Below are positions 31,111-59,718 of a stretch of 64,000 bases of DNA, piece after piece. The stretch is taken from NCBI RefSeq assembly GCF_004145405.1, contig NZ_SELQ01000003.1:248001-312000 (forward strand), read 5' to 3'. A program made the translations under genes and the position numbers. Origin of the DNA: Salipiger sp. IMCC34102. Its GTDB lineage: Bacteria; Pseudomonadota; Alphaproteobacteria; Rhodobacterales; Rhodobacteraceae. Numbering within the stretch: the stretch's first letter is position 1; each line of letters starts with the position of its first letter. The notes below the pieces were generated by a model that was not told the DNA's origin, ran no database searches, and worked only from the letters and a program-made list of their open reading frames with translations.

Positions 31111-33818
31111 TGTCGTTCAACGCGCTGATCCTGGCGGCGCTGGTCTATGTCGCGTTCCTGTTCAGCATCGCCTTCCTGGCCGAGCGACAGGCGCGGCGCG
31201 GGCGGGACCGCTGGCTGCGGCTGCCGCTGGTCTATACGCTGTCGCTGTCGATCTACTGCACGGCCTGGACGTTCTACGGGGCCGTGGGCTACGCGGCCCG
31301 GTCGGGGCTTGAGTACGTGACGATCTACCTTGGCCCGACGCTGGTGATGGTTGGCTGGTGGACCATCCTGCGCAAGCTGGTGCGGATCGGCAGGACGCAG
31401 GGGATCACCTCGATCGCGGACCTGATTTCCTCCCGGTTCGGCAAGTCGACGACGCTGGGCATGATCGTCACCGTGATGGCCGTGGTGGCGGCCACACCCT
31501 ATATCGCCCTGCAGTTGCAGTCGGTGGTGCTGAGCGTCGAGGTCTTCGCCCGCGTCGGCGGCTCCGACTGGGGGCCGCAGGACCTGCGGATCGCGGCGAT
31601 CTTCGTGGCGGTGGGATTGGCCGTCTTCACGATTCTCTTCGGCACCCGACACGTCGACGCGGGCGAGCGCCACAACGGGATCGTCATCGCCATCGCGGTC
31701 GAGGCGGTCGTGAAACTGGTGGCGCTGCTGGCCGTGGGCCTCTTCGTGGTCTGGGGGCTTTCCGACGGCCCGACCGCCATCCTGCAAGAGATCGACGCCT
31801 CCCGCATCGGGACCTGGTCCCAGCCGGGGGGGCGCTGGGTGGGGCTGATCTTCCTCTCCGCCGCGGCCTTCCTGTGCCTGCCGCGCATGTTCCAGGTGCT
31901 GGTGGTCGAGAACGCGGACGAGGCGCATCTGAAGACCGCATCCTGGGCCTTTCCGCTCTACATGCTGCTGATGAGCCTGTTCGTCCTGCCCATCGCGGTG
32001 GTCGGGTTGCGGCTGATGCCGGAGGGCGCCAACCCCGATCTCTTCGTCCTTACGCTGCCGCTCGCGCAGGACCGGCAGGGGCTGGCGGTGCTGGCGTTCC
32101 TCGGGGGGTTTTCCTCTGCCACGTCGATGGTGATCGTGGCGACCATCGCACTGGCCACGATGGTCTCGAACCACGTGGTCCTGCCGGTCTGGATGCGCAG
32201 CCGCGGGCCCGAGCGGGCGACTATGTCGGGCGACGTGCGCTGGGTCGCGGTCCTGACGCGGCGTCTGGCCATCGTCGGGACGCTGGCGCTGGGGTGGCTC
32301 TACTACAGCCTTTCCGGGGGTGGGGCCGCGCTTGCGGCGATCGGGTTGGTGTCGTTCTCCGGCGTGGTGCAGGTGCTGCCGGTGCTGCTCGGCGGGATCT
32401 TCTGGCGCGGGGCGACCCGGACCGGCGCGATCCTGGGGCTGACCCTGGGCGGGGCGCTTTGGGTCTGGACGCTGTTCCTGCCCAGTTTCGGCGAGGGGGC
32501 CATCCTGTCCGCCCGGATTTTGGCCGAAGGCCCATGGGGCATCGGGGCGCTCAGACCGCAGGCCTTGCTGGGTATCGAGGGGATCGATCCGCTGCTGCAC
32601 GGGCTGCTGTGGTCGCTGCTGGTCAATACCGGCGCGTTCATCGCAGGCTCGGTGCTGAGCTTTCCCGCCCCGCTGGAACGCTTGCAGGGGGCGCAGTTCG
32701 TCAACGTCTTCGAAGGGGCGACCTCCGGTCAGGCATGGAAGCGCTCGGTCGCCACGGCCGAGGATCTGTTGATCCTGTCGCAGCGCATCATCGGGGCGCA
32801 GCAGTCGCAGGCCATGTTCCAGCGCGCGGCCCGGGCGCAGGGCAAGACCGATCTTCTGCCGGACGTCACCCCCGCCTTCCTCGAAGGGCTGGAACGCACG
32901 CTCGCGGGCTCCGTCGGGGCGGCGACGGCCCATGCGATGATCGCGCAGCTGGCACAGGGCACCAGCGTCACGGTGGACGATTTGTTTGCGCTGGCCGACG
33001 AGACGGCGCAAATCCTCGAATACTCGGGCCGGCTGGAGGCGAAGAGCGCCGAACAGGAACGCACGGCACTCGCCCTGCGCGAGGCGAACGAAAAACTGGT
33101 TGCCCTGTCCGCCCAGAAGGATGCCTTCCTCAGCCAGGTCAGCCACGAGTTGCGCACGCCGATGACCTCGATCCGGGCGTTCTCGGGGATCCTGACGCAG
33201 CACGGGCTGAACCCGGAGGAGACCGCGCGCATGGCCGGCATCATCAACGCCGAGGCGCTGCGGCTCACGCGCCTGCTGGACGATCTGCTCGATCTGTCGG
33301 TGCTGGAGGCGGGACAGGTCAGCCTGCAGGTCCAGGACGGGCAGCTGGGTGCCGTGCTCGACCGGGCGATCGCGGCGGCGGGCGCGGGGGCGCAGGCCCT
33401 CGACCTCGACCGTGTGCCCGAGGAGGAGGCGATTGCCGTCTCGACGGACCTCGACCGCCTGGCGCAGGTGTTCATCAACCTCGTGTCGAATGCCGCGAAG
33501 TATTGCGATGCCACGCGTCCCCGGCTGACGATCCGGGTCACCCGCTCCGGCGATTGGGTCCAGGTCGATTTCACGGACAACGGCTCCGGCATCGCGCGGC
33601 AGGACGCGGCGGTCATCTTCGAGAAGTTCTCGCGCCTGACCGATTCCGCGCGGGCCGGGGGGGCCGGGCTGGGACTCGCGATCTGCCGCGAGTTGATGAC
33701 CCGCATGGGCGGACAGATCGACTATGTCGATGCCGGACCGGGGGCGACGTTCCGCGTGAAACTGCCGCAAAGGTCACCTCTCGCGGGCACGACATCTCGC
33801 GTCTTCACCGCGCGCTAA
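31110..33818 (+). CDS. Sensor histidine kinase with N-terminal sodium/solute-symporter domain (CbrA/CrbS-like)
   Basis: 902 residues. The first ~520 form an SSS-type transporter with about 13 helices (TAWTFYGAVGYAARSGLEY, ITSIADLISSRFGKS). A linker and coiled coil lead to HisKA with H-box FLSQVSHELRTPMTSI and a HATPase domain with FINLVSNAAKYC, DNGSGI and GGAGLGLAIC. CbrA and CrbS relatives sense histidine or acetate. There is no attached receiver, matching the separate response regulator upstream. An acetyl-CoA synthetase gene, a usual target, is not in the window. Confidence 0.92.
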   Translation: MSFNALILAALVYVAFLFSIAFLAERQARRGRDRWLRLPLVYTLSLSIYCTAWTFYGAVGYAARSGLEYVTIYLGPTLVMVGWWTILRKLVRIGRTQGITSIADLISSRFGKSTTLGMIVTVMAVVAATPYIALQLQSVVLSVEVFARVGGSDWGPQDLRIAAIFVAVGLAVFTILFGTRHVDAGERHNGIVIAIAVEAVVKLVALLAVGLFVVWGLSDGPTAILQEIDASRIGTWSQPGGRWVGLIFLSAAAFLCLPRMFQVLVVENADEAHLKTASWAFPLYMLLMSLFVLPIAVVGLRLMPEGANPDLFVLTLPLAQDRQGLAVLAFLGGFSSATSMVIVATIALATMVSNHVVLPVWMRSRGPERATMSGDVRWVAVLTRRLAIVGTLALGWLYYSLSGGGAALAAIGLVSFSGVVQVLPVLLGGIFWRGATRTGAILGLTLGGALWVWTLFLPSFGEGAILSARILAEGPWGIGALRPQALLGIEGIDPLLHGLLWSLLVNTGAFIAGSVLSFPAPLERLQGAQFVNVFEGATSGQAWKRSVATAEDLLILSQRIIGAQQSQAMFQRAARAQGKTDLLPDVTPAFLEGLERTLAGSVGAATAHAMIAQLAQGTSVTVDDLFALADETAQILEYSGRLEAKSAEQERTALALREANEKLVALSAQKDAFLSQVSHELRTPMTSIRAFSGILTQHGLNPEETARMAGIINAEALRLTRLLDDLLDLSVLEAGQVSLQVQDGQLGAVLDRAIAAAGAGAQALDLDRVPEEEAIAVSTDLDRLAQVFINLVSNAAKYCDATRPRLTIRVTRSGDWVQVDFTDNGSGIARQDAAVIFEKFSRLTDSARAGGAGLGLAICRELMTRMGGQIDYVDAGPGATFRVKLPQRSPLAGTTSRVFTAR

Positions 33819-49876: not shown

Positions 49877-49951
49877 GCCTGGGTAGCTCAGGGGTAGAGC
49901 AGTGGATTGAAAATCCTCGTGTCGGCAGTTCGATTCTGCCCCCGGGCACCA
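49877..49951 (+). tRNA. tRNA-Phe (anticodon GAA), integration target
   Basis: 75 bases with encoded CCA. Acceptor GCCTGGG pairs with CCCGGGC (one G·T), anticodon loop TTGAAAA (GAA), T-arm GTTCGATTC. The 3' portion is duplicated at the right end of the island, so insertion kept the tRNA intact. Confidence 0.96.
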
Positions 49952-49953
49952 TT
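49904..49953 (+). repeat. attL: 50-bp direct repeat in the tRNA-Phe 3' end
   Basis: Starts in the anticodon arm and runs two bases past the CCA. An identical copy lies 9.77 kb downstream. This is the left attachment site of the element. Confidence 0.92.
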
Positions 49954-50003
49954 CAAGCGATTGTTATTGCTAGAGCTTTCCATATCTCTACTGGATAGTC
50001 TCC

Positions 50004-51095
50004 TTAAGGTTTGACGCTTTTGGTGAAGGGTTTGACAACCTGTGATCGCCGTTCGTTCTCTTCCTCGAGCGTTTCCATCGTTTGCCGGTTGCGCTCTGCG
50101 AGGTTGGCAGATCGGGAATAGTGCCGCGCCATCGCCGGGGTCTTCTGCCCCAACAGGTCGGCTATCTGTCGCTCTTCAAGCCCCGCCTCGCGCAGCGTCG
50201 TGGCGACGGTATGGCGAAGGCCCTTAAGGGTCAGTCCCGGTTGCACGACACCCTCGGCTTCCAGCTTCTTCTTGAAGCGGTGCCAGACCGTCGAGAACCC
50301 GTCATAGGTCCAGGGCTTCCCCTTGGAGTTTGCGAGGATCGTCACCGCGTCGTGGCGCGGCGCAGCGTCCAGCGCCCTCTGCAATGTCGGGCCAATCGGG
50401 ATTGCGATCTCTTCGCCGGTCTTGCCGCGAACGCCCCAGATCGTGCTGCCGTCAATCTGGCTGCGCATGAGCTTGAGGGCGTCGGATGGATCGAGGCCCG
50501 TGTTCATGATCAGCGCGACCGTCACGCGCACGTGCGGAGCGGTGCGTTCCAGCACCGCGGCGCGCTCTTCCGGTGTCCAGGGGCGGTTTGCGTAGGGGCG
50601 ATCCTTCGGCCTGGGTTTTGGAATGACGCCTGCCGAATAGTCACGGTCGATCAGCCCTTTCGGAATGGCGAACCGGAACACCTGGCCAAGGAACGTGCGG
50701 ACCATGTTGGCCCGCCGCCAGCCGATTTTCTGCGCAGCCTTGTCGTGAATACCGGCGATCAGCGGCGTGTTGATCGCGGAAACCGGGGTATCCCTGATCG
50801 GGTGAAGGAAGTCTGCGCACTTGCGGTAATCGCGTTGCGTCGCGGCTGCGCGGTTCTTGAAGTGCTCGGTTCCGAAATAGACCAGGATCAGCCCGCCAAG
50901 TGTCCCCGGCTTCGGTTCTTGATTCTTTCGCGCCTCCGCGATTGCCTGGATCCGTGCGCACTCCGCAAAGAAAACGGCCGAGCCGAGCGGGGCCTTATCC
51001 AGGTCAATCTTGTGGCCGGTCGAGCGGTGGTAGCAGCGCGGTTTCCCGTGCCGATCTTCGAAGATCTTGAAGCCCCTCACCTTGATCCGTGTCAT
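50004..51095 (-). CDS. Tyrosine recombinase (integrase) of the island
   Basis: 363 residues. The C-terminal catalytic domain ends with LKGLRHTVATTLREAG and LLGQKTPAMARHYSRS, giving the box II Arg and the nucleophilic Tyr. The box I motif reads NTGLDPSDALKL: an Asp sits where the catalytic Arg usually is (TGxR), and Lys replaces the first box II His. I recall similar motifs in other Rhodobacterales integrases, so it may be active. Its 3' end faces the tRNA target, and its start shares one base with the AlpA-like stop (TGATG). Confidence 0.93.
   Translation of the reverse strand: MTRIKVRGFKIFEDRHGKPRCYHRSTGHKIDLDKAPLGSAVFFAECARIQAIAEARKNQEPKPGTLGGLILVYFGTEHFKNRAAATQRDYRKCADFLHPIRDTPVSAINTPLIAGIHDKAAQKIGWRRANMVRTFLGQVFRFAIPKGLIDRDYSAGVIPKPRPKDRPYANRPWTPEERAAVLERTAPHVRVTVALIMNTGLDPSDALKLMRSQIDGSTIWGVRGKTGEEIAIPIGPTLQRALDAAPRHDAVTILANSKGKPWTYDGFSTVWHRFKKKLEAEGVVQPGLTLKGLRHTVATTLREAGLEERQIADLLGQKTPAMARHYSRSANLAERNRQTMETLEEENERRSQVVKPFTKSVKP
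50007..50037 (+). repeat. Left pair of GGTTTGAC repeats (integrase arm-site candidates)
   Basis: Two direct copies of GGTTTGAC (AGGTTTGACGC and GGGTTTGACA), 21 bases apart, within the 3' end of the integrase gene and ~55 bases from attL. Three similar copies lie next to attR in the same orientation. Confidence 0.55.
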
Positions 51096-51331
51096 CAGAG
51101 CTTGCCGAGAATTGCGTCTCGCGTCGTCATCTCGGCCCCTCCCTTCATGTCATCAATCCAGCGGTCCAGGTCGCGCTTGTCCCATGACCTCGCACCGGGC
51201 CGAATTTCGAGCGGCTGGACCGGACACGTCGCCTTGAAGTGTTTCTGGGGCAGTCCGGTGTATGCAGCGGCTTCGGTCAGGCTCAGCATCCGTTTGTCGA
51301 TGACGCTGATATTCAGGTTCGCATTGCCCAT
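51095..51331 (-). CDS. AlpA-like/MerR-type small DNA-binding protein
   Basis: 78 residues with a winged-helix excisionase-like start: MLSLTEAAAYTGLPQKHFKA, then SWDKRDLDRWIDDM. Such proteins act as excisionases or activators of satellite integrase genes. It directly precedes and overlaps the integrase gene, the usual place for AlpA in PICIs. Confidence 0.82.
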   Translation of the reverse strand: MGNANLNISVIDKRMLSLTEAAAYTGLPQKHFKATCPVQPLEIRPGARSWDKRDLDRWIDDMKGGAEMTTRDAILGKL

Positions 51332-51407
51332 TTCTCGTCAACCTCGACTCGGTTCTTGATCCTTGGGAGAGGGCCGGGCGGACGAACCCGAACGACCTTC
51401 GCTCTCG

Positions 51408-51884
51408 TTACTCTTCACCAGCCCATTGCTTGTAGCGCGCGCGCACCTGCTGACGGATACCGTCGATGGAAAAGCAGATAGTCGCGACTTCGGAGCCGGT
51501 GTCGTTCGGCCCCCAAAAGCTCGGGGCGTCCCCTTCGGCGCGGGCAACGCATCCATCGTTGAACCCATCCAGCGGGAAGTCGAAGCGGCCGGTCGCGTCG
51601 GGGTCCGCCCGCAGCGCGGCCAGGACAGCTTCGGCATACATGCCCGCCACCCGCTTGCTGATCGCGGGCTTTCGGGTCGCCTGTTCGACGCCGTAGACGT
51701 TCATCATAAACGAATAAACGCGCAGGGCGCACATATCCGCCTCATCCCAAAACCTGCCGGTGCGGGCATGTGCCCGCGGGGCGCAGGGATATGCGCCAGA
51801 CGCGATATCTTCATTGAGCCGCTGCCGGTCGATGTTCAAAACGTCGCAGACTGCGAGGGTCGGAAGTTTCTGGTTCGGTTTCAT
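51408..51884 (-). CDS. Probable regulator with N-terminal helix-turn-helix
   Basis: 158 residues. The first ~65 look like a MerR-type DNA-binding segment (AVCDVLNIDRQRLNEDIASG, then GRFWDEADMCALRVYSFM). The rest is helical with a C-terminal stretch SIDGIRQQVRARYKQW. It sits under a nested palindrome that could be its own operator. Function as master regulator of the island is inference; no family is recognised. Confidence 0.65.
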   Translation of the reverse strand: MKPNQKLPTLAVCDVLNIDRQRLNEDIASGAYPCAPRAHARTGRFWDEADMCALRVYSFMMNVYGVEQATRKPAISKRVAGMYAEAVLAALRADPDATGRFDFPLDGFNDGCVARAEGDAPSFWGPNDTGSEVATICFSIDGIRQQVRARYKQWAGEE

Positions 51885-51922
51885 GGCTGAGCTTCCCTGT
51901 GCCGTGTGACGCCATAGCTAGA

Positions 51923-51977
51923 GCGGGAGTTTGTGTAACGCAATACAAAATTTTGTATTCGACTGGCAAACTCCCGC
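51923..51977. promoter_or_regulatory. Nested palindrome, probable operator of the regulator gene
   Basis: An 18-base perfect palindrome AATACAAAATTTTGTATT is centred inside a wider inverted repeat with 11-base arms (GCGGGAGTTTG / CAAACTCCCGC), within half a base of the same centre. It ends ~38 bases upstream of the regulator start. No U-run follows, so an operator is likelier than a terminator. Confidence 0.62.
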
Positions 51978-51993
51978 CTATTAGCTCTTGGCG

Positions 51994-52425
51994 TCAAGAA
52001 TATGCACAAGGCCGCCCAGGCTTGCCGCTCGCAGCGCGCCAGAGCGCGGCAATCATCTTGATATCGGGAAAGTCGCATTGCCGTTGGTAGTCCGGACTAT
52101 TCACGATAGCGGTTGGCCCGAAGGACTCCCAAACCATATGGGCAAGAGCTGCCATGCCGTCCGAGCTACAGGGCGTTAGCTCGGCCGCGGCGTTGAAGGC
52201 GGCATCCTCCCGGGCGGCAGCTTCCAAAGATCGCGGATCATCAAAGTCCGCATTGCTTGGAAGCTTGGCCAGCTCGTACCATTCCGCGCGGGCCGCAAGC
52301 CATTGGTGGTAGAGCGGCACGACGGGATCGAGGACTTGCGCTTGGATGGGGAATGGGGTCGCAAGGGCTATCCCGGAAACGGGAAGCGCGGTCAGCACCG
52401 CACGGCGGGTCAGTTGGTTGGTCAT
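51994..52425 (-). CDS. Exported hypothetical protein with twin-arginine signal
   Basis: 143 residues. The start LTRRAVLTALPVSGIALATP is a twin-arginine-type signal, with likely cleavage after IQAQ. The mature part is helical with LYHQWLAARAEWYELA and Cys residues near the end. It is not a phage structural gene and looks like cargo. I recall proteins of this look in Rhodobacterales islands but no function. Start set by the signal peptide; longer frames are excluded. Confidence 0.68.
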   Translation of the reverse strand: MTNQLTRRAVLTALPVSGIALATPFPIQAQVLDPVVPLYHQWLAARAEWYELAKLPSNADFDDPRSLEAAAREDAAFNAAAELTPCSSDGMAALAHMVWESFGPTAIVNSPDYQRQCDFPDIKMIAALWRAASGKPGRPCAYS

Positions 52426-52792
52426 GGTGGTTCTCTCGGTTGGCGGCTTTCTAGGGCCTTGCCAGCGACGGACTGGCGCCGGGGTGCTAGAAACTTGCCG
52501 AGAGACAAGCGTGACGTTTTTCCCGCGAGGGTCTTGTATGACGCCACCACCCCGACATAAGTTATCGGAGAGCGAACGCCGCCAAGCGTCATCGCAGTTC
52601 GACCGGCTCCCGCGCCAACGGGGGTAATCCTGCACAGGATATCGGTCTATCTCGGTCCGGGTTTCTAGGCCCGCGGACACCTTTGCGCAGATCAGCAGCA
52701 CAATCAAGCCCGCCATTGGCGGAGCTGATGCCATGTTGACTTTTCAGGCGGCAATACTCAATTCGATGGGAACGATTTGAAAGGAATGATTC
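52426..52792. other. Gap between two divergent island genes
   Basis: About 370 bases. It should hold promoters for both flanking genes; a TTGACT at 52736–52741 could be a -35 box for the downstream small gene, but the -10 is weak. No other structure is seen. Confidence 0.45.
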
Positions 52793-53017
52793 ATGATCAA
52801 ACATTTAGACGCTTTAGCACTGGGCGGTATTGCACTAAAGGGCGGCAGCTTGGAGGTTGATGGATCGCAGTTCGACGCTCTCGCACTCGGCGGCATTGCG
52901 CAAAAGCTCCAACCTGGCGCTCACTTAAAAATTCACAATTCGGCTAGACTCAACGCCTTGGCGATGGGCGGCATTGCTTCGAAAGCTGGCACGGGTGCTA
53001 CGGTCATCTTTTGCTGA
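52793..53017 (+). CDS. Small three-repeat protein (LDALALGGIAxK)
   Basis: 74 residues with an AAGGAA ribosome-binding site six bases before the ATG. Three copies of a near-identical unit occur: LDALALGGIALK, FDALALGGIAQK and LNALAMGGIASK, spaced ~22–26 residues, separated by polar strands. It lacks a signal peptide and charged motifs. The regular repeats suggest a small beta-solenoid or membrane/lipid-binding strip. I do not recognise the family. It is the only clear plus-strand gene in the island. Confidence 0.62.
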   Translation: MIKHLDALALGGIALKGGSLEVDGSQFDALALGGIAQKLQPGAHLKIHNSARLNALAMGGIASKAGTGATVIFC

Positions 53018-53138
53018 AAAGAAGCTGCGCGCCACGCCGACCAAGGAAGTCGGCCGCGCGCTCTCGGGGTTTTCCCACTCACCGAGTAACGGGGTCGCTT
53101 GGTGGAACCGGACGACCACCCGCCGCGACCTGGCTATC

Positions 53139-54218
53139 TCATGCCGCGTTGTCGCCCTCTCCCCAGTTGACCAGCGTCATGACCGCGCCCAGCTCGTCGC
53201 TGGTCAGGCCACCGGCCTTGGCTTCCGCGATCGTCTTGACCAGGGCCGATGCAGCGCGGGCGCGGCCGCCCACGTCATAGGCCTGCACCGGGCGCATAAG
53301 GTCGATCATCACTTCCCCGCCCAGCTTGGCCGTCGCCTCCTCTGCCAGGAGCATCGCGATCGGTTGCAAGGTCCACCCGGCAAGGTGGCGCTGCGCCTCC
53401 CGCACCACAGGGCCGGTCGCAGCATGGTTCGCCAGCGCGGGCAGAACGCCGAAGGCCATGAAGATCCCCGCGCGCGCCGCCTGCAACGTCTCGGCCGTCA
53501 TCGACTTTGACAGGTCAGGCGACAGCTGGTCAGGCTTCTGACCGATCTGGGGGTTCATCCCGGCCGCGGTTGCCTGGGCCACGCCCCCGATCACAAGCGA
53601 TGCCCCCCGGTTCCCCTTCAGCGCGGCCCGGATCGTCTCCATGTCCTCTTCGCCGGTGTCCGGCATGGGCACGATCTGCGAACCGAGCGGGGCGTTCTCG
53701 AATGTCTCGGCAAGCGCGGATTCCACCGCGTGAAGCATCCCGCCGGTCAGACTGGACCGCCGCAGCGGCGCGGTGCCGACCCACGGCGTCACCGGGTCCG
53801 ATGCGATCCGCAGGTGCAGGACCTCGCCCGCCAGGGCGGTGACCATCCGCCCGCCGTTCGCTTCGGGGATCGTCATGCGGTAGGCGCGGGGTTCGCCGTC
53901 GCGTGTCGTCACGTCCCAGTCGATCGCGGGGACCAGGCCACGGCTACCGATCAGGAAGACCGCATCGCCATTCAGCGCCACCGACCGCGCCGCCAGTGCC
54001 AGAACGCGGCGGGTCAGCAGATCGGTGCCTTGCACGTCGCCCAGGGCGAACGCGCCTTCCCACAGGCTGACGCAGGTCTGCGCGGTCGAGGTCAGCTCTG
54101 CCACGCCGCGACGGCCCGAGATGAAGGTTTCCCGCGTCGCCATGAGCTGCGCGGTGTAGCTCGAACCGCTCGCGCGGGTCTCAGTCGGTTGCAGCATGGT
54201 CTGAAGCCACTTAAGCAT
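53139..54218 (-). CDS. HK97-family phage portal protein
   Basis: 359 residues, typical of HK97 portals: TLARRVLALAARSVALNGDA-like helices and VALNGDAVFLIGS, EVLHLRIASDPVTPWVG, and GVLPALANHAATGP near the C terminus. The portal ring is the DNA entry channel of the head. GGAGGTGA precedes the ATG. Gene order is capsid–protease–portal, reverse of the usual portal–protease–capsid. Confidence 0.92.
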   Translation of the reverse strand: MLKWLQTMLQPTETRASGSSYTAQLMATRETFISGRRGVAELTSTAQTCVSLWEGAFALGDVQGTDLLTRRVLALAARSVALNGDAVFLIGSRGLVPAIDWDVTTRDGEPRAYRMTIPEANGGRMVTALAGEVLHLRIASDPVTPWVGTAPLRRSSLTGGMLHAVESALAETFENAPLGSQIVPMPDTGEEDMETIRAALKGNRGASLVIGGVAQATAAGMNPQIGQKPDQLSPDLSKSMTAETLQAARAGIFMAFGVLPALANHAATGPVVREAQRHLAGWTLQPIAMLLAEEATAKLGGEVMIDLMRPVQAYDVGGRARAASALVKTIAEAKAGGLTSDELGAVMTLVNWGEGDNAA

Positions 54219-54222
54219 GGCG

Positions 54223-54774
54223 TCACCTCCATCGGGTCGCGTGAGAGAATGCAAGCGCGCGGCGGGCCACGTCACCGATCGGTTGCCAGTTGCGGGCTTC
54301 GATCTGCGCTTCGGAATAGGCGGGGCGTGTCACGGCCGAGACTTCGAACAGCTCGGCCGAGGCGATCGTGCGCAGGATGCCGTTGCCGCGCCGTTCGATC
54401 CACTCGCCACCTTTCGACACACGGAACCCGGGCGAGAGACCCCGGACCAGTCCGCCGCCGTGCGCCGCAAGAAAGTCGCGGGCCCAGCTCGTGCCGGTGT
54501 CGATGGTTGCCGTGATCATCAGGGCGTCGTCGCCATCGGTCAGCGTCAGGGTGCCGGCAGACCTGGACGCCAGCGGTCGATTGAAGTCGTGTCCTGCCAG
54601 CAGGTGAATTTCCGCGCCGCTGTCGATCCGGGCGCGGAATGCGCGGGGGGCGATCACCTCGTGCCGCCCCGCCGCGATCTCGGTTTCCCGACCGTATGGG
54701 AACCGGGCCGTCAGGCGGGTTGCCCCGCCGTCCGATCGCAGCTCGAGGCTGCCGTTATGACCGCCCCAGAGCAT
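54223..54774 (-). CDS. HK97-family prohead protease
   Basis: 183 residues of the S78 type. Catalytic His62 lies in LLAGHDFNRPLASR and Ser114 in RGLSPGF, with a Glu in AELFEVSAV. It cleaves the capsid delta domain and scaffold during maturation. Start shares one base with the capsid gene stop (TGATG). Confidence 0.93.
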   Translation of the reverse strand: MLWGGHNGSLELRSDGGATRLTARFPYGRETEIAAGRHEVIAPRAFRARIDSGAEIHLLAGHDFNRPLASRSAGTLTLTDGDDALMITATIDTGTSWARDFLAAHGGGLVRGLSPGFRVSKGGEWIERRGNGILRTIASAELFEVSAVTRPAYSEAQIEARNWQPIGDVARRALAFSHATRWR

Positions 54775-56009
54775 CAGACTGCGCCGATGCCGGTAAGGAT
54801 GCGGGTTTGCAGCCCGCGCGGCACGGTGAAGTCCGCCGTCACCAGGCCGGTCAGGATCAGCGCGCCGCTTCCCGCCTTCGTGTAGGGATCGCGGATCAGA
54901 TCAACGGCCCCGTAGATACCCAGATAGCCGGGTGCGACGCCTTGGACTGTGGCGGTCATGATCGCCGTCTGGTCGGGGATCACGTTGCTGACGGCGGGCG
55001 TCCCGACATGCTTGGTCAGGCGATCCCACTCGGACACCGCAGTGCCTGCGATCAGCGCGGCGTCGAGGTCAGCCCAGATCGCGGGGTCGAACCCGAGATT
55101 GACCTGCGACGCGGACGTGATCGCGTTCGCCTGCATGAACGCCACGACCTCGGCGCGGAAAGCGGCCCAACTGGCGGCCGCGCCCACGGCCGTCGCCGCG
55201 ATCCCGTAGGTCGCCGCGCCGGGGATGATGCCCAGGGGCTGACCGTCCGCGCCGCTGCCGTTGACCACGACGCGATCCAGCTCGGCACCGACCACCGCGT
55301 TCAGGTCGCGCCGGATCGCGCTTTCCAGTCCGTCGCCCGCCTGCTTCAACGCCTTGCGGCTGATGACCATCTGTGCGCCGCCGGTGTGATCCGGGTTCAG
55401 GTTGCGCTCGGAGGTTGCGAACTTCTGCGCCGCGCCGACATTGCCCAGCTCGTCCGTCTGCCAGCCGAAGACTGCGCCAGAGGTCGCAACCGGGAAGGCC
55501 AGCTCACCAGACGTGATGTTGATGTTCTGGACGCCCAGCTGCGCGGCAACGCTGCCGGGGAACAGCCGGTCGATGATCGGACGGATCTGGCGCGGGTTGA
55601 TCTGATCGCCCGCGACTGTCTCGCCAGCGCGGGTTTCCAGCGCCGCCAGTGGGATCGGGACGCCCTGATAGCCGCCAGCCTGCCGCAGCTCGTCCACAAT
55701 CTCTTTCGTGGCACCAGACAGGTCGCGGCCTTCGTCCAGGTTGAACGCGACCTGGCGCAGCTCGAACCGCCCGACCAGCTCCTGCCAGTCGCGATCGGAC
55801 CGGGTTTCCAGCTCGTCGCCCGCTTCGCGGCGCTCGGTGTCCTCGGCAATGAGGGCCGCACGATACCGGGTTTCGTTGGAACGGTATTCCCGATCCAGCG
55901 TGTCCATCTGACGGACTTCGTCCTCGGACGGGGTTTCCTTGCCCGCCAGCTCCGCCAGCGATTGGCGGATTTCGCTCTGGCGGCGAGCGATCTTCACAGA
56001 TTCCAGCAT
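54774..56009 (-). CDS. HK97-fold major capsid protein
   Basis: 411 residues. A helical, charged N-terminal ~110 residues (RQSLAELAGKETPSEDEV) act as the delta/scaffold region removed by the protease; then the HK97 core with QINPRQIRPIIDRLFPGSVA, GWQTDELGNVG and the C-terminal GYLGIYGAVDLIRDPYTKAG. Complete and undamaged, which argues the module is functional. Confidence 0.94.
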   Translation of the reverse strand: MLESVKIARRQSEIRQSLAELAGKETPSEDEVRQMDTLDREYRSNETRYRAALIAEDTERREAGDELETRSDRDWQELVGRFELRQVAFNLDEGRDLSGATKEIVDELRQAGGYQGVPIPLAALETRAGETVAGDQINPRQIRPIIDRLFPGSVAAQLGVQNINITSGELAFPVATSGAVFGWQTDELGNVGAAQKFATSERNLNPDHTGGAQMVISRKALKQAGDGLESAIRRDLNAVVGAELDRVVVNGSGADGQPLGIIPGAATYGIAATAVGAAASWAAFRAEVVAFMQANAITSASQVNLGFDPAIWADLDAALIAGTAVSEWDRLTKHVGTPAVSNVIPDQTAIMTATVQGVAPGYLGIYGAVDLIRDPYTKAGSGALILTGLVTADFTVPRGLQTRILTGIGAV

Positions 56010-56018
56010 GATTTATCC

Positions 56019-56351
56019 TTACATGGCCGGGTTGGGTTTTGTTGCCAGATCGGCAACGGCGTCCGCCCAAGCGTCACGCTCGGGCGATTGGATCGGTGCG
56101 GGATGCCCGCATTCGATCCGGGTCTTTCGTGTGTGGCAGGGACCGCAAAGCGCTTGCAGGTTGCCGGGGTCATAGGACAGCGCCGGGTGCGTTCGGACGG
56201 GCTTGATGTGATCGACCTCGAGCCGCCCACCGCAGCCGCAGGATCGACACCGGAACCTGTCGCGCTCGAGGATCTGCATTCGCAGCACCTTCCAGCGCTT
56301 CGAGCTGGTGACTTTCCGGGAATGCCGCCGGTGTTGCTTGCTCATAGCCAT
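56019..56351 (-). CDS. HNH endonuclease
   Basis: 110 residues. CRSCGCGG, then EVDHIKPVRTHPALSYDPGN and LCGPCHTRKT make the HNH core with its zinc Cys pairs. Phage HNH proteins next to terminase aid cos cleavage and packaging, suggesting a cos-type element. It overlaps the terminase 3' end by 10 bases. Confidence 0.93.
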   Translation of the reverse strand: MAMSKQHRRHSRKVTSSKRWKVLRMQILERDRFRCRSCGCGGRLEVDHIKPVRTHPALSYDPGNLQALCGPCHTRKTRIECGHPAPIQSPERDAWADAVADLATKPNPAM

Positions 56352-57991
56352 TGGACACGTCGCTTCTGTTGGGGCGCCGCCTTCATCCGAGCGCCCTGGG
56401 CCACGGCCAGCACCGTCGCCGCAGCCGCGTCGATCCGGCCCAGAGAACGGCCCTTGCCCAGCTTGGCATTCCCGGCCGGGTCGATCAGGGTCACGGCGTC
56501 CGCGAAGGCGAACCGCAGCAACAGCGACGGCACCGCCTTCACCTCGCCATCGAAGAGCGCGCGGCGGAACCGCTCGATATCCTCACTGCCGTCCTTCCAG
56601 CCGAACCCGCGCCAGATCAGGGGGACGCGGGCCAGCCCGGCGTTGTTCAGCGCCTCGGTGAATTCAGCGTGACGGAAGCGGTCCCCCACGATGCAGGCGG
56701 GCTGGATGCCGTCGAGCTGGCGGACGATTGCGGCCATCCAAGGCCCCGGCGGGACTGTGTTCTCGCCCATGACGGACAATTCGCCGCGCTCGAGCATCTC
56801 GGTGTAGCGCCCCGCCACGCCATCGGATGCGCCGCGATCTGCGAGCGACGGCGATGCCGGGAAGGTGCCCAGGGACTCGAGGCGACCCGTGTTCGGCCAG
56901 TAGAACGATGCGGCGGACATGCTGCGCGAGCCGCCCAGATCCACGCCCAAAACGCAGGGGCCGTCGCGCGGCGGCAGTTCGGCTGGTGACACCTCGGCCG
57001 ACAGCCATTCATCGACTGTGACCAGGACACTGCGGTTCTCGATCGAGACGCGCTCATTGCGGTTGAGGTTGCGGAAGCTGGTCAAGGCCGATCCGCCCCG
57101 CGCAATCGCGCTGCGCGCCTGCGACACCAGCCAGTCAGGCGTCGAACCAATGCCTTCGGACGCGCCGGGGTTCGCCTCGAGGAGCGACGGCAGATCGTCC
57201 GCAGGCAGTCCGAAGGCGGGCCGATGTTCCTGGACGTAGGCACCGGGCGGCGGTTCATCCAGCCATCGGGAAAAGGTGTTGGTGTCGTCGGCCGCTGACG
57301 TCGAGATGATCAGCGCGCGGCCGTCACGTTTGCCCAGGCCGGACAGGATCGCGTTCTCGAGGTTGTCGCCCTTCTCGCGTTCCCACGCCGCCCGTTCGTC
57401 CAGGATAGCCAGCGTAGGGGCACCGCCCAGGACCGACTTGCCATCGGCCGCGATGCAGCGCGCCAGACCGCCGCCGTTGCCCGCGAATTCGACCTCGAGC
57501 TTCGACCCGCGCCGGATGGTGAACATGGCCTGATCTTCGACGGGCAGACCAGCGATGTAGCCCAGCACGAAGTTGAAGGCGATGCGCGCCTGGTCACGGT
57601 TGCGGGCTGCGAAGATGATCTCTCGGTTCGGCTGGGGGGCTTCATCGAGAGCGCCCACCAGGTCCGCGAGGGCAAGCCCTGCCGAAAGTGCCGTCTTCGC
57701 GTTGCCGCGCCCGATGGACAGAACGCCGACCGTGACCTTCTTGCCGAATGCGCCTTTCACGAAACTGCGCTGGAAATTCGCCAGTTTCAGAGGTTTTCCG
57801 GCCTTTTTGCCCTCGGGAATGCGAAGAAGGCCCAGAAACTGAATTGCGCGGACGCCGGGCGATTTTCCCCGGATTTTTTCCAGAAGAGAGAAATGAACAC
57901 TCCCACCCCGGTAGCCAAGGTTAACTGAAGTCGCGGCATTGGGACCAGTTCCGAACAGATCAGCCGTCGCGCGGTCGGTGTGTTTTGTCAT
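56342..57991 (-). CDS. Terminase large subunit
   Basis: 549 residues. Walker A-like VGVLSIGRGNAKTAL, Walker B TLAILDERAAWE and the motor block IISTSAADDTNTFS are followed by a nuclease domain with VLGVDLGGSRSMSA and CIVGDRFRHAEF. The ATG after GAGGGAGA is chosen. It packages DNA into preformed heads. Intact. Confidence 0.94.
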   Translation of the reverse strand: MTKHTDRATADLFGTGPNAATSVNLGYRGGSVHFSLLEKIRGKSPGVRAIQFLGLLRIPEGKKAGKPLKLANFQRSFVKGAFGKKVTVGVLSIGRGNAKTALSAGLALADLVGALDEAPQPNREIIFAARNRDQARIAFNFVLGYIAGLPVEDQAMFTIRRGSKLEVEFAGNGGGLARCIAADGKSVLGGAPTLAILDERAAWEREKGDNLENAILSGLGKRDGRALIISTSAADDTNTFSRWLDEPPPGAYVQEHRPAFGLPADDLPSLLEANPGASEGIGSTPDWLVSQARSAIARGGSALTSFRNLNRNERVSIENRSVLVTVDEWLSAEVSPAELPPRDGPCVLGVDLGGSRSMSAASFYWPNTGRLESLGTFPASPSLADRGASDGVAGRYTEMLERGELSVMGENTVPPGPWMAAIVRQLDGIQPACIVGDRFRHAEFTEALNNAGLARVPLIWRGFGWKDGSEDIERFRRALFDGEVKAVPSLLLRFAFADAVTLIDPAGNAKLGKGRSLGRIDAAAATVLAVAQGARMKAAPQQKRRVQWL

Positions 57992-58104
57992 CGTCGTCTC
58001 CCTCGCGTGTGTTGCGCGCTGTCTGTTCTGTCTCACCTGCTCAATGGTGAGGTTCGGAGCGAAGGGCATAGGACGACTGCCCACGCTAGGAAGCGCGGCA
58101 GTCC

Positions 58105-58299
58105 CTATGCCCTCTGCGTGAAGTCCTGCTCAACGGAGCCGGTCCATCGCTTTAGGCCCAACTGGTCGTGCGTTTCCGCCAGTCGGTTGGCCGCTACTTT
58201 CGACGCGTAAACGCTGCGCCGGGGATCGGGCTTCGGCCTTTCGGACTGCCCTTTGCCTGTGATCCCGCCCGTGGTAGACAGAGACACGCGTGGTGCCAC
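58105..58299 (-). CDS. Possible small protein upstream of terminase
   Basis: About 64 residues from a GTG, in the otherwise empty ~370-base gap before terminase. The C-terminal part (RRSVYASKVAANRLAETHDQ) looks protein-like and helical, but ribosome-binding sites are weak and I recognise no family. It could be the missing small terminase-type protein, or noise. Confidence 0.3.
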   Translation of the reverse strand: MAPRVSLSTTGGITGKGQSERPKPDPRRSVYASKVAANRLAETHDQLGLKRWTGSVEQDFTQRA

Positions 58300-58361
58300 C
58301 GTTGTGACCCGAACCACCACTCGTGGCCCTGCATGAGGTGGCGTGCAGGGTCGCCCTTCGC

Positions 58362-58589
58362 TTACTCCTCGATCAGATCGAATTCGGGTTCCGGCGCGGC
58401 CGTCAGCTCTTCCACCATTCGGCGCATGACTTGGGCCTGCCGATAAGTCGGACGCCAGTTCTTCCGCTTGCCGTGGCGCGCGATCGACTTGGCGAAGCCA
58501 GCCTCCCATTCGTTGCCGACCGCGACGGCGCGCCGCACGACCATCGGCCAGCGGAACGTCAGCAGCTCGTCCAGCTCACGCTCGGTCAT
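58362..58589 (-). CDS. Small phage-type hypothetical protein
   Basis: 75 residues: GNEWEAGFAKSIARHGKRKN, then WRPTYRQAQVMRRMVEEL and an acidic tail. Proteins of this look occur in Rhodobacterales prophages next to packaging genes; role unknown. ATGA overlap with the connector gene shows co-translation. Confidence 0.75.
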   Translation of the reverse strand: MTERELDELLTFRWPMVVRRAVAVGNEWEAGFAKSIARHGKRKNWRPTYRQAQVMRRMVEELTAAPEPEFDLIEE

Positions 58590-59134
58590 AGCTGCACCCC
58601 GCGATACCTGGCCCCGATCACCGCAAGGTGTGGCGAGGTGCCGAAAAGCTTATCGGTCCAGTTTGACCGGCCGTCGTAAAGCAACGCGGCCTGATCCATG
58701 AGAGCTTGTGAGAGGTCCGCTGGCACGTCCGACGCCGCGATCCCGAACCCCGCCTGATACTCGACTTCGACCTGGCGCGGTGTCAGCGCGTGGTAGCTGT
58801 CGCGCCAACGGATGTAAGGCCGGTTGCCACCCACAAAGTCGAACGCGCTGAAAGCCGCGCTGTCGATTGTGACGGCCGGGGCGTCCCCATCCGCGACCGG
58901 GCCGATGGGCAGGCGCAAACCGCTTTGCGGTGCAGGATCAAAGATCGTCACGTGGATCGTCTGCGTCAGCAGCGCGATCTGTGCGAAGTGCTCGAGCTGC
59001 GCCGCCGCAGTCCGCCCCATCGTCTTGATCGCTTCGTTTTCCTCGTCAGCGTCAACCCGTATCTGTGCCTTGAGGTCGGCCAGCTCGAAAGGATCTGCGG
59101 CCGCGATAGGGGTTCGGGTTACAAGCATTTTCAT
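58586..59134 (-). CDS. Head–tail connector protein (gp6-like)
   Basis: 182 residues with an N-terminal LADLKAQIRVDADEENEAI start and a VEYQAGFGIAASDVPADLSQALMDQAALLYD-type C-terminal helix region, as in HK97 gp6/phiE125 gp8 connectors. It docks onto the portal and would receive a tail, which fits a satellite that borrows tails. Confidence 0.87.
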   Translation of the reverse strand: MKMLVTRTPIAAADPFELADLKAQIRVDADEENEAIKTMGRTAAAQLEHFAQIALLTQTIHVTIFDPAPQSGLRLPIGPVADGDAPAVTIDSAAFSAFDFVGGNRPYIRWRDSYHALTPRQVEVEYQAGFGIAASDVPADLSQALMDQAALLYDGRSNWTDKLFGTSPHLAVIGARYRGVQL

Positions 59135-59379
59135 GCTGCGGCCTCCCGCTCCTGGACGAAGGACAGAAAAGCCGTCTGGTCACGCGCCGGCATTGCCCGG
59201 AACGATGCCAGCGCGAAGGCCTTAAGTTCCTGCCTGGATGCGCGGGCGGCCCACCAGCGGGCGTCTTCCATCGCGTCGACCTCGGGCGGCAGAGGATACC
59301 CCGCACCTTTCAGGGCGCAGCTGGCAACGTCCTGTGCAGTCTCGCAGTCGAGCGATGCCAGCAAAGCGAACGCAAGCAT
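59131..59379 (-). CDS. Hypothetical island protein, start uncertain
   Basis: At least 82 residues (CETAQDVASCALKGAGYPLP, ARWWAARASRQELKAFALAS). The open frame continues upstream through the attR repeat with plausible protein-like sequence (KSKTTFGKLGLSRHK, FRARLTELERG) but no ATG, GTG or TTG. The true start may be non-canonical, or the 5' end was lost. ATGA overlap with the connector gene. Confidence 0.6.
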   Translation of the reverse strand: MLAFALLASLDCETAQDVASCALKGAGYPLPPEVDAMEDARWWAARASRQELKAFALASFRAMPARDQTAFLSFVQEREAAA

Positions 59380-59574
59380 CCCCCGTTCAAGCTCGGTGAG
59401 CCGCGCCCGAAAGATGACAGGAAGCCCGGCAAAGTCATCCGGCCCGCCCAGCGTCAGCGCGTAGGCGATCGACCGGGAAGCGGACTTGTGTCGGGAAAGG
59501 CCAAGTTTGCCGAATGTGGTCTTCGATTTACCACTGGACGAACCGAGTCTTTTACACGTCCGTTCGGTTTGTTT

Positions 59575-59626
59575 GGGTTTGACAATTACCGCGTAAGGGC
59601 TTGACGCATCGACGTGGGTTTGACGC
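59575..59626 (+). repeat. Right trio of GGGTTTGAC repeats
   Basis: Three direct copies (GGGTTTGAC, GGGCTTGAC, GGGTTTGAC), about 22 and 19 bases apart, 43 bases before attR. They match the left pair in sequence and orientation, as expected of integrase arm-binding sites. Confidence 0.58.
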
Positions 59627-59668
59627 GCAGGATCGCCGTAAGTGACTGATCTTTCACCGGATAGCGCC

Positions 59669-59718
59669 GGATTGAAAATCCTCGTGTCGGCAGTTCGATT
59701 CTGCCCCCGGGCACCATT
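59669..59718 (+). repeat. attR: 50-bp copy of the tRNA-Phe 3' end
   Basis: Identical over 50 bases to attL; lacks the 5' part of the tRNA so it is not a second tRNA gene. Confidence 0.92.

What the first reader, a model, noticed from the sequence alone, without database searches (positions are those of the whole stretch)
49904..59718. Candidate capsid-forming phage-inducible island (cf-PICI) in tRNA-Phe
The 9.8 kb element has an integrase, an AlpA-like protein and a complete, intact HK97-type head and packaging set (TerL, HNH, connector, capsid, protease, portal), yet no tail, lysis or replication genes. Seen in sequence: gene content and perfect att repeats. Known: cf-PICIs make their own capsids and package their own DNA, using helper-phage tails. 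Inference: this is such an island in a Rhodobacteraceae-like host, where few are described.
Basis: partly seen in the sequence, partly recalled or inferred. Interest (0 to 1): 0.88.

Follow-up and report, generated by a model that had tools for sequence, protein, structure and literature searches.

The report
Head-making phage satellite with unknown RNAs
This 9.8 kb stretch looks like a parasite of phages that builds its own DNA-filled heads but must borrow tails from a helper phage; it belongs to a large family in alphaproteobacteria and carries two folded RNAs that the public RNA library does not know, one of them shared with an isolated phage.

Summary
A 50-bp perfect repeat of the tRNA-Phe 3' end bounds a 9,765-bp element with integrase, AlpA-like protein, adaptor, TerL, HNH, HK97-type capsid, protease and portal; no tail, lysis or replication gene was recognised.
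It is unlikely to be a wrecked prophage. The capsid recurs in 226 named-genome stretches (80 examined) and at least 540 in IMG/VR. The 51 elements with accepted bounds measure 9.7-11.8 kb, mostly at tRNA genes; three are circular contigs. The capsid matched no catalogued phage, and head genes are under purifying selection. I read it as a helper-dependent satellite that makes its own heads. It works like a cf-PICI but is smaller (10 against 14 kb), with no separate small terminase and no replication gene recognised.
A minority of relatives carry it; so do satellite-like elements with another terminase type and Paracoccus phage Shpa, right after helicase and primase. None of the 51 elements has both p75 and a recognised replication gene. 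A second such RNA (RNA-2) follows the portal. Best guess, unproven: p75 and RNA-1 capture the helper's replication.

The parts
49877..49951 (+). tRNA-Phe (GAA), integration target, intact at this junction
   Evidence: ARAGORN; Rfam
49904..49953 (.). att repeat, tRNA copy (50 nt)
59669..59718 (.). att repeat, distal copy (50 nt, identical)
50004..51095 (-). tyrosine integrase, 363 aa
   Evidence: PF00589; phrog_1; 70% identical integrase in a relative also at tRNA-Phe (L035)
51095..51331 (-). AlpA-like excisionase/regulator, 78 aa
   Evidence: phrog_66 E 0.0039 (weak); 67% identical copy beside the integrase in L035
51408..51884 (-). 158-aa protein of unknown function; similar proteins in some relatives
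   Evidence: no Pfam/PHROG match; tblastn hits
51994..52425 (-). 143-aa protein with a signal-peptide-like start (by eye), cargo-like
   Evidence: no Pfam match; tblastn hits in L093, L097, L101, L102, L128
52470..52556 (-). sRNA-Xcc1 family RNA (RF02221), upstream of the 143-aa gene
   Evidence: 59 bits, gathering 53, E 7.6e-9
52793..53017 (+). 74-aa open frame with internal LDALALGGIA-type repeats; unknown
   Evidence: PHROG only E 0.32
53016..53139 (-). RNA-2: structured RNA that begins at the portal stop codon
   Evidence: R2 105.9 bits; pair counts; no Rfam match over it
53139..54275 (-). portal protein (likely start near 54218, by eye)
   Evidence: PF04860
54223..54774 (-). prohead protease S78, 183 aa
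   Evidence: PF04586
54774..56009 (-). major capsid protein, HK97 type, 411 aa
   Evidence: PF05065; family A1
56019..56351 (-). HNH endonuclease, 110 aa (also matches phrog_4581, named terminase small subunit, over the HNH part)
   Evidence: PF01844; phrog_144 2.7e-22 and phrog_4581 3.3e-14
56342..57991 (-). terminase large subunit (frame opens at 58084)
   Evidence: phrog_9 3.1e-52; PF03354
58099..58280 (-). RNA-1: pseudoknotted RNA between p75 and TerL
   Evidence: R1 197.5 bits (a training sequence); pair counts; no Rfam match over it
58362..58589 (-). p75: 75-aa three-helix protein that accompanies RNA-1
   Evidence: alignment A8; AlphaFold2 pLDDT 89; co-occurrence
58586..59134 (-). head-tail adaptor (gp6-like), 182 aa
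   Evidence: phrog_442 9.1e-17
59131..59379 (-). p82: small all-helical protein; here without the N-terminal part and start that relatives have
   Evidence: model made of a relative, L107

Best explanation
A mobile phage satellite that encodes its own small head and packaging motor and takes tails, and probably replication and lysis, from a helper phage. Shown by sequence: integration at tRNA-Phe, a conserved head and packaging operon under selection, a length near 10 kb across genera, and circular forms of relatives. Inferred: on helper infection the integrase with the AlpA-like protein excises the circle; the helper replisome copies it with the help of p75 and RNA-1, which lie where relatives carry a replication gene; TerL and HNH cut and fill small HK97-type heads with one ~10 kb genome; the adaptor joins helper tails. 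A role of RNA-2 in the 3' end of the head-gene message is a guess.
For: Att and gene set. The core genes found lie on one strand in the order TerL-HNH-capsid-protease-portal in the 80 named loci, apart from genes cut off in L076, L092, L108, L114 and L123 and an extra adaptor hit in L130. 49 of these 80 gave accepted bounds, 9,663-11,750 bp. Contigs with terminal repeats: 10,118-bp unit (Paracoccus binzhouensis), 10,340 bp (Gemmobacter serpentinus, title coverage 941), 9,970 bp (IMG/VR). Capsid: no match in 50,697 phage records. dN/dS medians over 13 pairs: capsid 0.18, TerL 0.16, portal 0.36. Replication link: of 51 elements 19 have p75, 16 a replication gene by my HMMs, none both, Fisher p 1e-4; Shpa has RNA-1 directly after helicase and primase, and another phage contig has it after a helicase and a p82-like gene, both named by eye.
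Against: No induction, particle or transfer data. The helper is not identified; the host genome holds a P2-like prophage and a GTA-like cluster but nothing ties their tails to this adaptor. p82 lacks its usual start here. No empty site: in 7 of 8 other genomes of the genus the left flank was found, but the right flank was not next to it in the DNA fetched. The bounds filter accepted only spans above 9 kb (above 9 and under 12.5 kb for repeats not tied to a tRNA), so the size range is partly imposed; it removed one case, a 14-nt, 8.06-kb pair in L079. RNA-1 is in a minority of the capsid family, and 7 of the 19 p75 elements have no RNA-1 match. RNA-1 lies upstream of packaging genes as well as after replication genes. 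The exclusion statistic ignores shared ancestry, and p82 is not exclusive (in 5 of the 16 replication-gene elements).
Confidence: 0.8

Rival explanations
1. A defective prophage that has lost its tail, lysis and replication genes.
For: Missing modules; p82 has lost its usual start.
Against: Similar size, same core order and tRNA sites in many genera; no catalogued phage with this capsid; purifying selection; circular contigs of relatives.
Confidence: 0.06
2. A tail-less transfer particle: heads released without tails, taken up by another route or paired with tails outside the cell.
For: No tail genes recognised; passages of one preprint describe cf-PICIs interacting with diverse phage tails.
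Against: A gp6-like adaptor is encoded, which normally docks a neck or tail (recalled); head-closure proteins occur among relatives' genes.
Confidence: 0.08
3. RNA-1 is a leader of the downstream operon (processive antiterminator or translation control) rather than a replication element.
For: It lies 88-324 nt before the TerL match in 30 of 47 listed IMG/VR loci and between early genes and terminase in two large phage contigs (by eye).
Against: In Shpa it follows helicase and primase and is followed by small unknown genes; it also follows an integrase in islands where no head genes were recognised.
Confidence: 0.35
4. RNA-1 or RNA-2 is really a cos or terminase-binding DNA site.
For: Both lie beside packaging genes.
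Against: Compensatory and G-U pairs and pseudoknots point to RNA; RNA-1 also goes with sets that have their own Nu1-like TerS.
Confidence: 0.12

Closest known systems
Capsid-forming PICIs (cf-PICIs, e.g. EcCIEDL933)
   Same: Own capsid, protease, portal, connector, HNH and TerL, tails from a helper; small integrative element (described second-hand in passages of PMC10690885, PMC10803314, PMC13230959; capsid family PF05065 is named for the published cf-PICIs in the last).
   Different: ~10 kb against a 14 kb mean; no separate small terminase recognised; no primase here; hosts not among those listed in PMC10803314; carries RNA-1 and RNA-2. The original cf-PICI paper is not held, so gene order was not compared.
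Mulch/Flayer capsid-encoding satellites of Streptomyces phages
   Same: Own capsid and packaging genes, no primase; MulchRoom's tail inferred to come from its helper (passages).
   Different: Those have TerS, direct terminal repeats, a scaffolding protein and virulent actinobacterial helpers.
cf-PISP satellite plasmids of Vibrio
   Same: Head-encoding element without tail genes, PF05065 capsid (passages).
   Different: 15.8 kb, episomal, with parA/repA, no integrase.
Paracoccus phage Shpa (NC_041868)
   Same: Carries RNA-1 at 33067-33232.
   Different: 38 kb phage, called lytic in PMC6536676, with its own helicase and primase; the RNA is annotated there as a hypothetical protein.
RcGTA-like gene transfer agents
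   Same: HK97-type head genes in the same group of hosts.
   Different: GTAs have tails and no integrase (recalled); the host's own GTA-like cluster is elsewhere (C19).

Membership tests
cf-PICI | own capsid, protease, portal and head-tail connector | tested here: met
cf-PICI | large terminase and HNH endonuclease | tested here: met
cf-PICI | small terminase subunit | tested here: inconclusive
   no separate TerS recognised in the window; the HNH protein matches phrog_4581, named terminase small subunit, over its HNH part (3.3e-14); none among the 25 of 90 families shown for 109 non-core proteins of relatives; a divergent one could be missed
cf-PICI | no tail genes; tails taken from a helper | tested here: inconclusive
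   no tail genes recognised; one phrog tail-fibre match among 109 proteins of relatives; use of helper tails not testable here
cf-PICI | integrase and AlpA-type regulator at an att site | tested here: met
   AlpA match weak
cf-PICI | own replication gene (primase), said of all known satellites before Mulch/Flayer in PMC10690885 | tested here: not met
   none recognised in the window; present in 16 of 51 elements by my HMMs, other kinds in more
cf-PICI | capsid within the published cf-PICI capsid clades | not tested
   reference capsids not available here
Defective prophage | a complete relative with the same module | tested here: not met

The most novel reading that the evidence does not exclude
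RNA-1 is a new class of large pseudoknotted RNA that, with the helix protein p75, marks a DNA circle for copying by a phage replisome. It belongs to tailed phages such as Shpa and was captured as an interchangeable module by several unrelated satellite types, which drop their own replication genes when they have it; satellite and helper are thus linked by a shared RNA that could be used to predict helper pairs.
Probability: 0.3. Interest if true: 0.93.

Novelty: new variant of a known kind. Interest (0 to 1): 0.8.

Why it matters
It points to a large, uniform group of head-making satellites in alphaproteobacteria, including genomes whose prophages were catalogued in a paper that does not mention satellites, and it exposes two structured RNA families without a match in Rfam 15. 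One of these is shared between satellites with different packaging machines and an isolated phage, which gives a concrete, testable handle on how satellites latch on to helpers.

Tried and rejected
Remnant prophage: judged unlikely. RNA-1 as a replacement for TerS or as a packaging RNA: attractive because it sits where TerS would be, but p75 and RNA-1 also precede another terminase type (GpA-like, named by eye) that has its own small terminase, Nu1-like in Pfam at 1.4e-4, below the curated cut-off (L282; similar sets in L343, L345, L355, L356). u58105, first treated as a protein in my tblastn query set, is a translation of RNA-1. Folds of p75 and p82: usable models (pLDDT 89 and 82) but no PDB match at E 0.001. 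A DnaT-domain hint for p75 is 2 of 46 members, best E 0.027; other Pfam matches were RMI1_N_N in 6 (best 0.0034) and MST in 3 (best 2.1e-6), none used. Empty site in the genus: not found. Single-sequence folding is not unusual for either RNA (z -1.25 and -1.61).

Limits of the counts. Bounds: repeats of 14-16 nt in some loci could be chance, although each accepted one lies at a tRNA end; loci reach at most 10 kb to either side. Non-core scan: 109 of 174 cluster representatives of at least 75 aa (from 472 non-core frames of 50 elements) were given, mainly same-strand ones. The 95 sources hold some elements twice (for example L025 and L100).

I did not fetch a real cf-PICI for gene-order comparison: the prototype lies in an O157 strain, whose prophages carry a listed toxin (recalled), and no coordinates were at hand. 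Eight paper searches were used; they do not cover most subscription journals, so absence from print is not claimed.
Full report
What is there. tRNA-Phe at 49877-49951 is followed by an element bounded by two identical 50-nt repeats (49904-49953, 59669-59718). Family scans find integrase, portal, S78 protease, HK97-type capsid, HNH, TerL and a gp6-like adaptor. No tail, lysis or replication family was matched by the window proteins scanned. The only match to a family named small terminase is the HNH protein to phrog_4581 over its HNH part. IMG/VR already holds this stretch as a viral record: L291 is 100% identical to window 50004-59379.

Relatives. A capsid match is in 22 of 198 genomes of the family (16 at 51% identity or more), in 4 of 385 of the class at 1e-20 (two of them distant) and in 12 of 398 of the phylum at 1e-10, the strong ones within the class. 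A named-genome scan confirmed 226 of 253 stretches and kept 80: Paracoccus is closest (up to 83%), with other Rhodobacteraceae and also Aliihoeflea, Chelatococcus, Hansschlegelia, Jiella, Altererythrobacter and Hyphomonas. No phage record matched at 1e-5; four plasmid records did, one strongly (58.6%, Pseudorhodobacter turbinis). The host's P2-like prophage has a distant capsid match (C10:335676, 5.1e-16).

Order and size. In the 80 named loci the core genes found lie on one strand in the order TerL-HNH-capsid-protease-portal; L076, L092, L108, L114 and L123 are cut, and L130 shows an adaptor hit between TerL and HNH. For 49 of 80 a bounding repeat was accepted, spans 9,663-11,750 bp. The script accepted only spans above 9 kb, or 9-12.5 kb when no tRNA was tied to the repeat; that removed one 14-nt pair (L079, 8.06 kb). 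The other 31 gave no accepted repeat. Targets include tRNA-Asn, Phe, Cys, Arg, Lys, Ser, His, Thr and Glu. Two of the 49 are contigs with terminal repeats, that is, circles, and a third circle is an IMG/VR record. dN/dS against 13 relatives is 0.09-0.54 for six head and packaging genes (one adaptor pair saturated) and 0.18-0.76 for p75; silent divergence is high, so the values are rough, and the relatives are not independent.

Host family. The relative G026 is marked 'same family' and its contig length equals that of Szabonella alba L107, so the host is placed in Rhodobacteraceae by inference.

Two layouts. Some relatives start with integrase, AlpA and a replication gene upstream of TerL; others, like the window, start with p82, adaptor and p75 and end with AlpA and integrase. 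Over 51 distinct elements (49 named, the window, L133), p75 occurs in 19, a RepA-like or primase gene by my HMMs in 16, both in none, neither in 16 (its table lists two elements twice). Fisher p is 1e-4, with no correction for kinship. p82 occurs in both kinds. The 16 'neither' include several with other replication-like frames, named by eye from a cut output. A scan of 109 non-core proteins of relatives lists replication initiators, O-like, DnaD-like and primase families, head closure Hc1, and one tail-fibre match; 25 of 90 families are shown.

RNA-1. The interval between p75 and TerL is conserved as RNA. On 20 sequences, 36 pairs in 7 helices are 98.2% formed, 23 pairs have double changes, and the covariation score is 0.522 against 0.177 in shuffles (0 of 500) and 0.05-0.09 when slid. 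A trimmed alignment with a third pseudoknot and two 3' helices has 47 pairs, 96.8% formed; the two 3' helices there show no double changes. Pseudoknot helices were left out of model R1. On 46 further matches they form in 96.9% of cells; no shuffle of 500 reached the covariation score, though 34 of 500 reached the count of pair types. 4 of these 46 are identical to training sequences and 14 at least 95% alike; on the other 32 the helices form in 370 of 384 cells, covariation 0.435 against 0.141, 0 of 200 shuffles. The helix at columns 49-52:99-102 forms in every row. Rfam 15 gives no match over RNA-1 in the window at E 5 and none at all in six other loci at E 1.

Distribution of RNA-1. Of 95 sources (window and 94 loci, some elements twice) 14 score at least 148 bits and nine 32-41 bits, a variant sharing the 3' domain. 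Of the 80 IMG/VR loci drawn by the capsid, eight are in the training set and 72 others gave two weak matches. A motif scan of IMG/VR gave 98 stretches; of 93 searched, 46 score at least 94 bits. In Rhodobacteraceae 24 of 248 genomes match at 1e-3. The 12 elements among the 51 with an RNA-1 match (one of them weak, E 0.007) all have p75. p82-p75-RNA-1 also precedes another terminase type, GpA-like by eye, in G634 a few kb from an HK97-type relative (L345), and in some places stands without recognised head genes. It occurs in Paracoccus phage Shpa at 33067-33232, after DNA helicase gp45 and primase gp46 (166 bits); the IMG/VR record of L322 has the same length and position and is probably the same phage. 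Two other large phage contigs have it between early genes and terminase, named by eye (L320 at 169 bits, L324 at 66.7).

RNA-2. From the portal stop codon, ~124 nt: 26 sequences, 27 pairs, 91.4% formed (the second helix 73.1%), 18 with double changes, covariation 0.394 against 0.144 (0 of 500). It is in 39 of 95 sources at E 0.01 and in 5 of 34 further loci, all five of the GpA-like type, in L233 directly after TerL; none in the tailed-phage or host prophage loci among those 34. No Rfam match over it.

Helper. The host genome has a P2-like prophage (C10:330-350 kb; sheath by Pfam, the rest by eye), a GTA-like cluster (C19; terminase by Pfam, the rest by eye) and a tape-measure gene near a contig end (C40:386675). 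None is shown to be the helper.

Literature. cf-PICI features were taken from passages of PMC10690885, PMC10803314, PMC11389934, PMC13230959, PMC12846349 and PMC13345588. The 2019 Paracoccus virome paper PMC6536676 (outline and passages) lists prophages, the smallest in the passages seen 32.8 kb, and does not hold the word satellite; P. denitrificans DSM 413, P. yeei ATCC BAA-599, P. sediminis DSM 26170 and P. sphaerophysae HAMBI 3106 are in both its table and my loci. PMC12324425 (abstract) describes other, 4.6-kb elements.

Verdict. A widespread, probably active, helper-dependent head-making satellite; a variant of the cf-PICI way of life rather than a proven cf-PICI; most interesting for the two RNA families.

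Noticed in passing
window 52470-52556 (-): sRNA-Xcc1 (RF02221) above its gathering score, upstream of a cargo-like gene; similar DNA in L023 and L030, seen through translated frames.
   Followed up: partly
window 52793-53017 (+): Plus-strand frame in the element with LDALALGGIA/LNALAMGGIA-type repeats; no family match better than E 0.32.
   Followed up: no
L345 (G634:C1:1200000-1219000): Two satellite-like sets of different packaging type near each other, HK97-type and GpA-like, the second with p82-p75-RNA-1.
   Followed up: partly
L109 (Gemmobacter serpentinus): Circular 10.3 kb contig with title coverage 941, as if multicopy; coverage of the other contigs unknown.
   Followed up: no
L086 and L122: Proteins near TerL that look like ADP-ribosyl transferases by eye; one of 109 scanned proteins matched Pfam Arr-ms. 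Possible cargo.
   Followed up: no
L353, L348, L349: RNA-1 shortly after an integrase (with an AlpA-like gene in L353 and L348, by eye) in islands with no recognised head genes.
   Followed up: partly
NC_041868 33048-33227: gp47 of phage Shpa, annotated as a hypothetical protein, coincides with RNA-1 and is probably not a gene.
   Followed up: yes
G000:C10:330000-349900: P2-like prophage in the host genome with sheath, tape measure and other tail-like genes (by eye except the sheath).
   Followed up: partly
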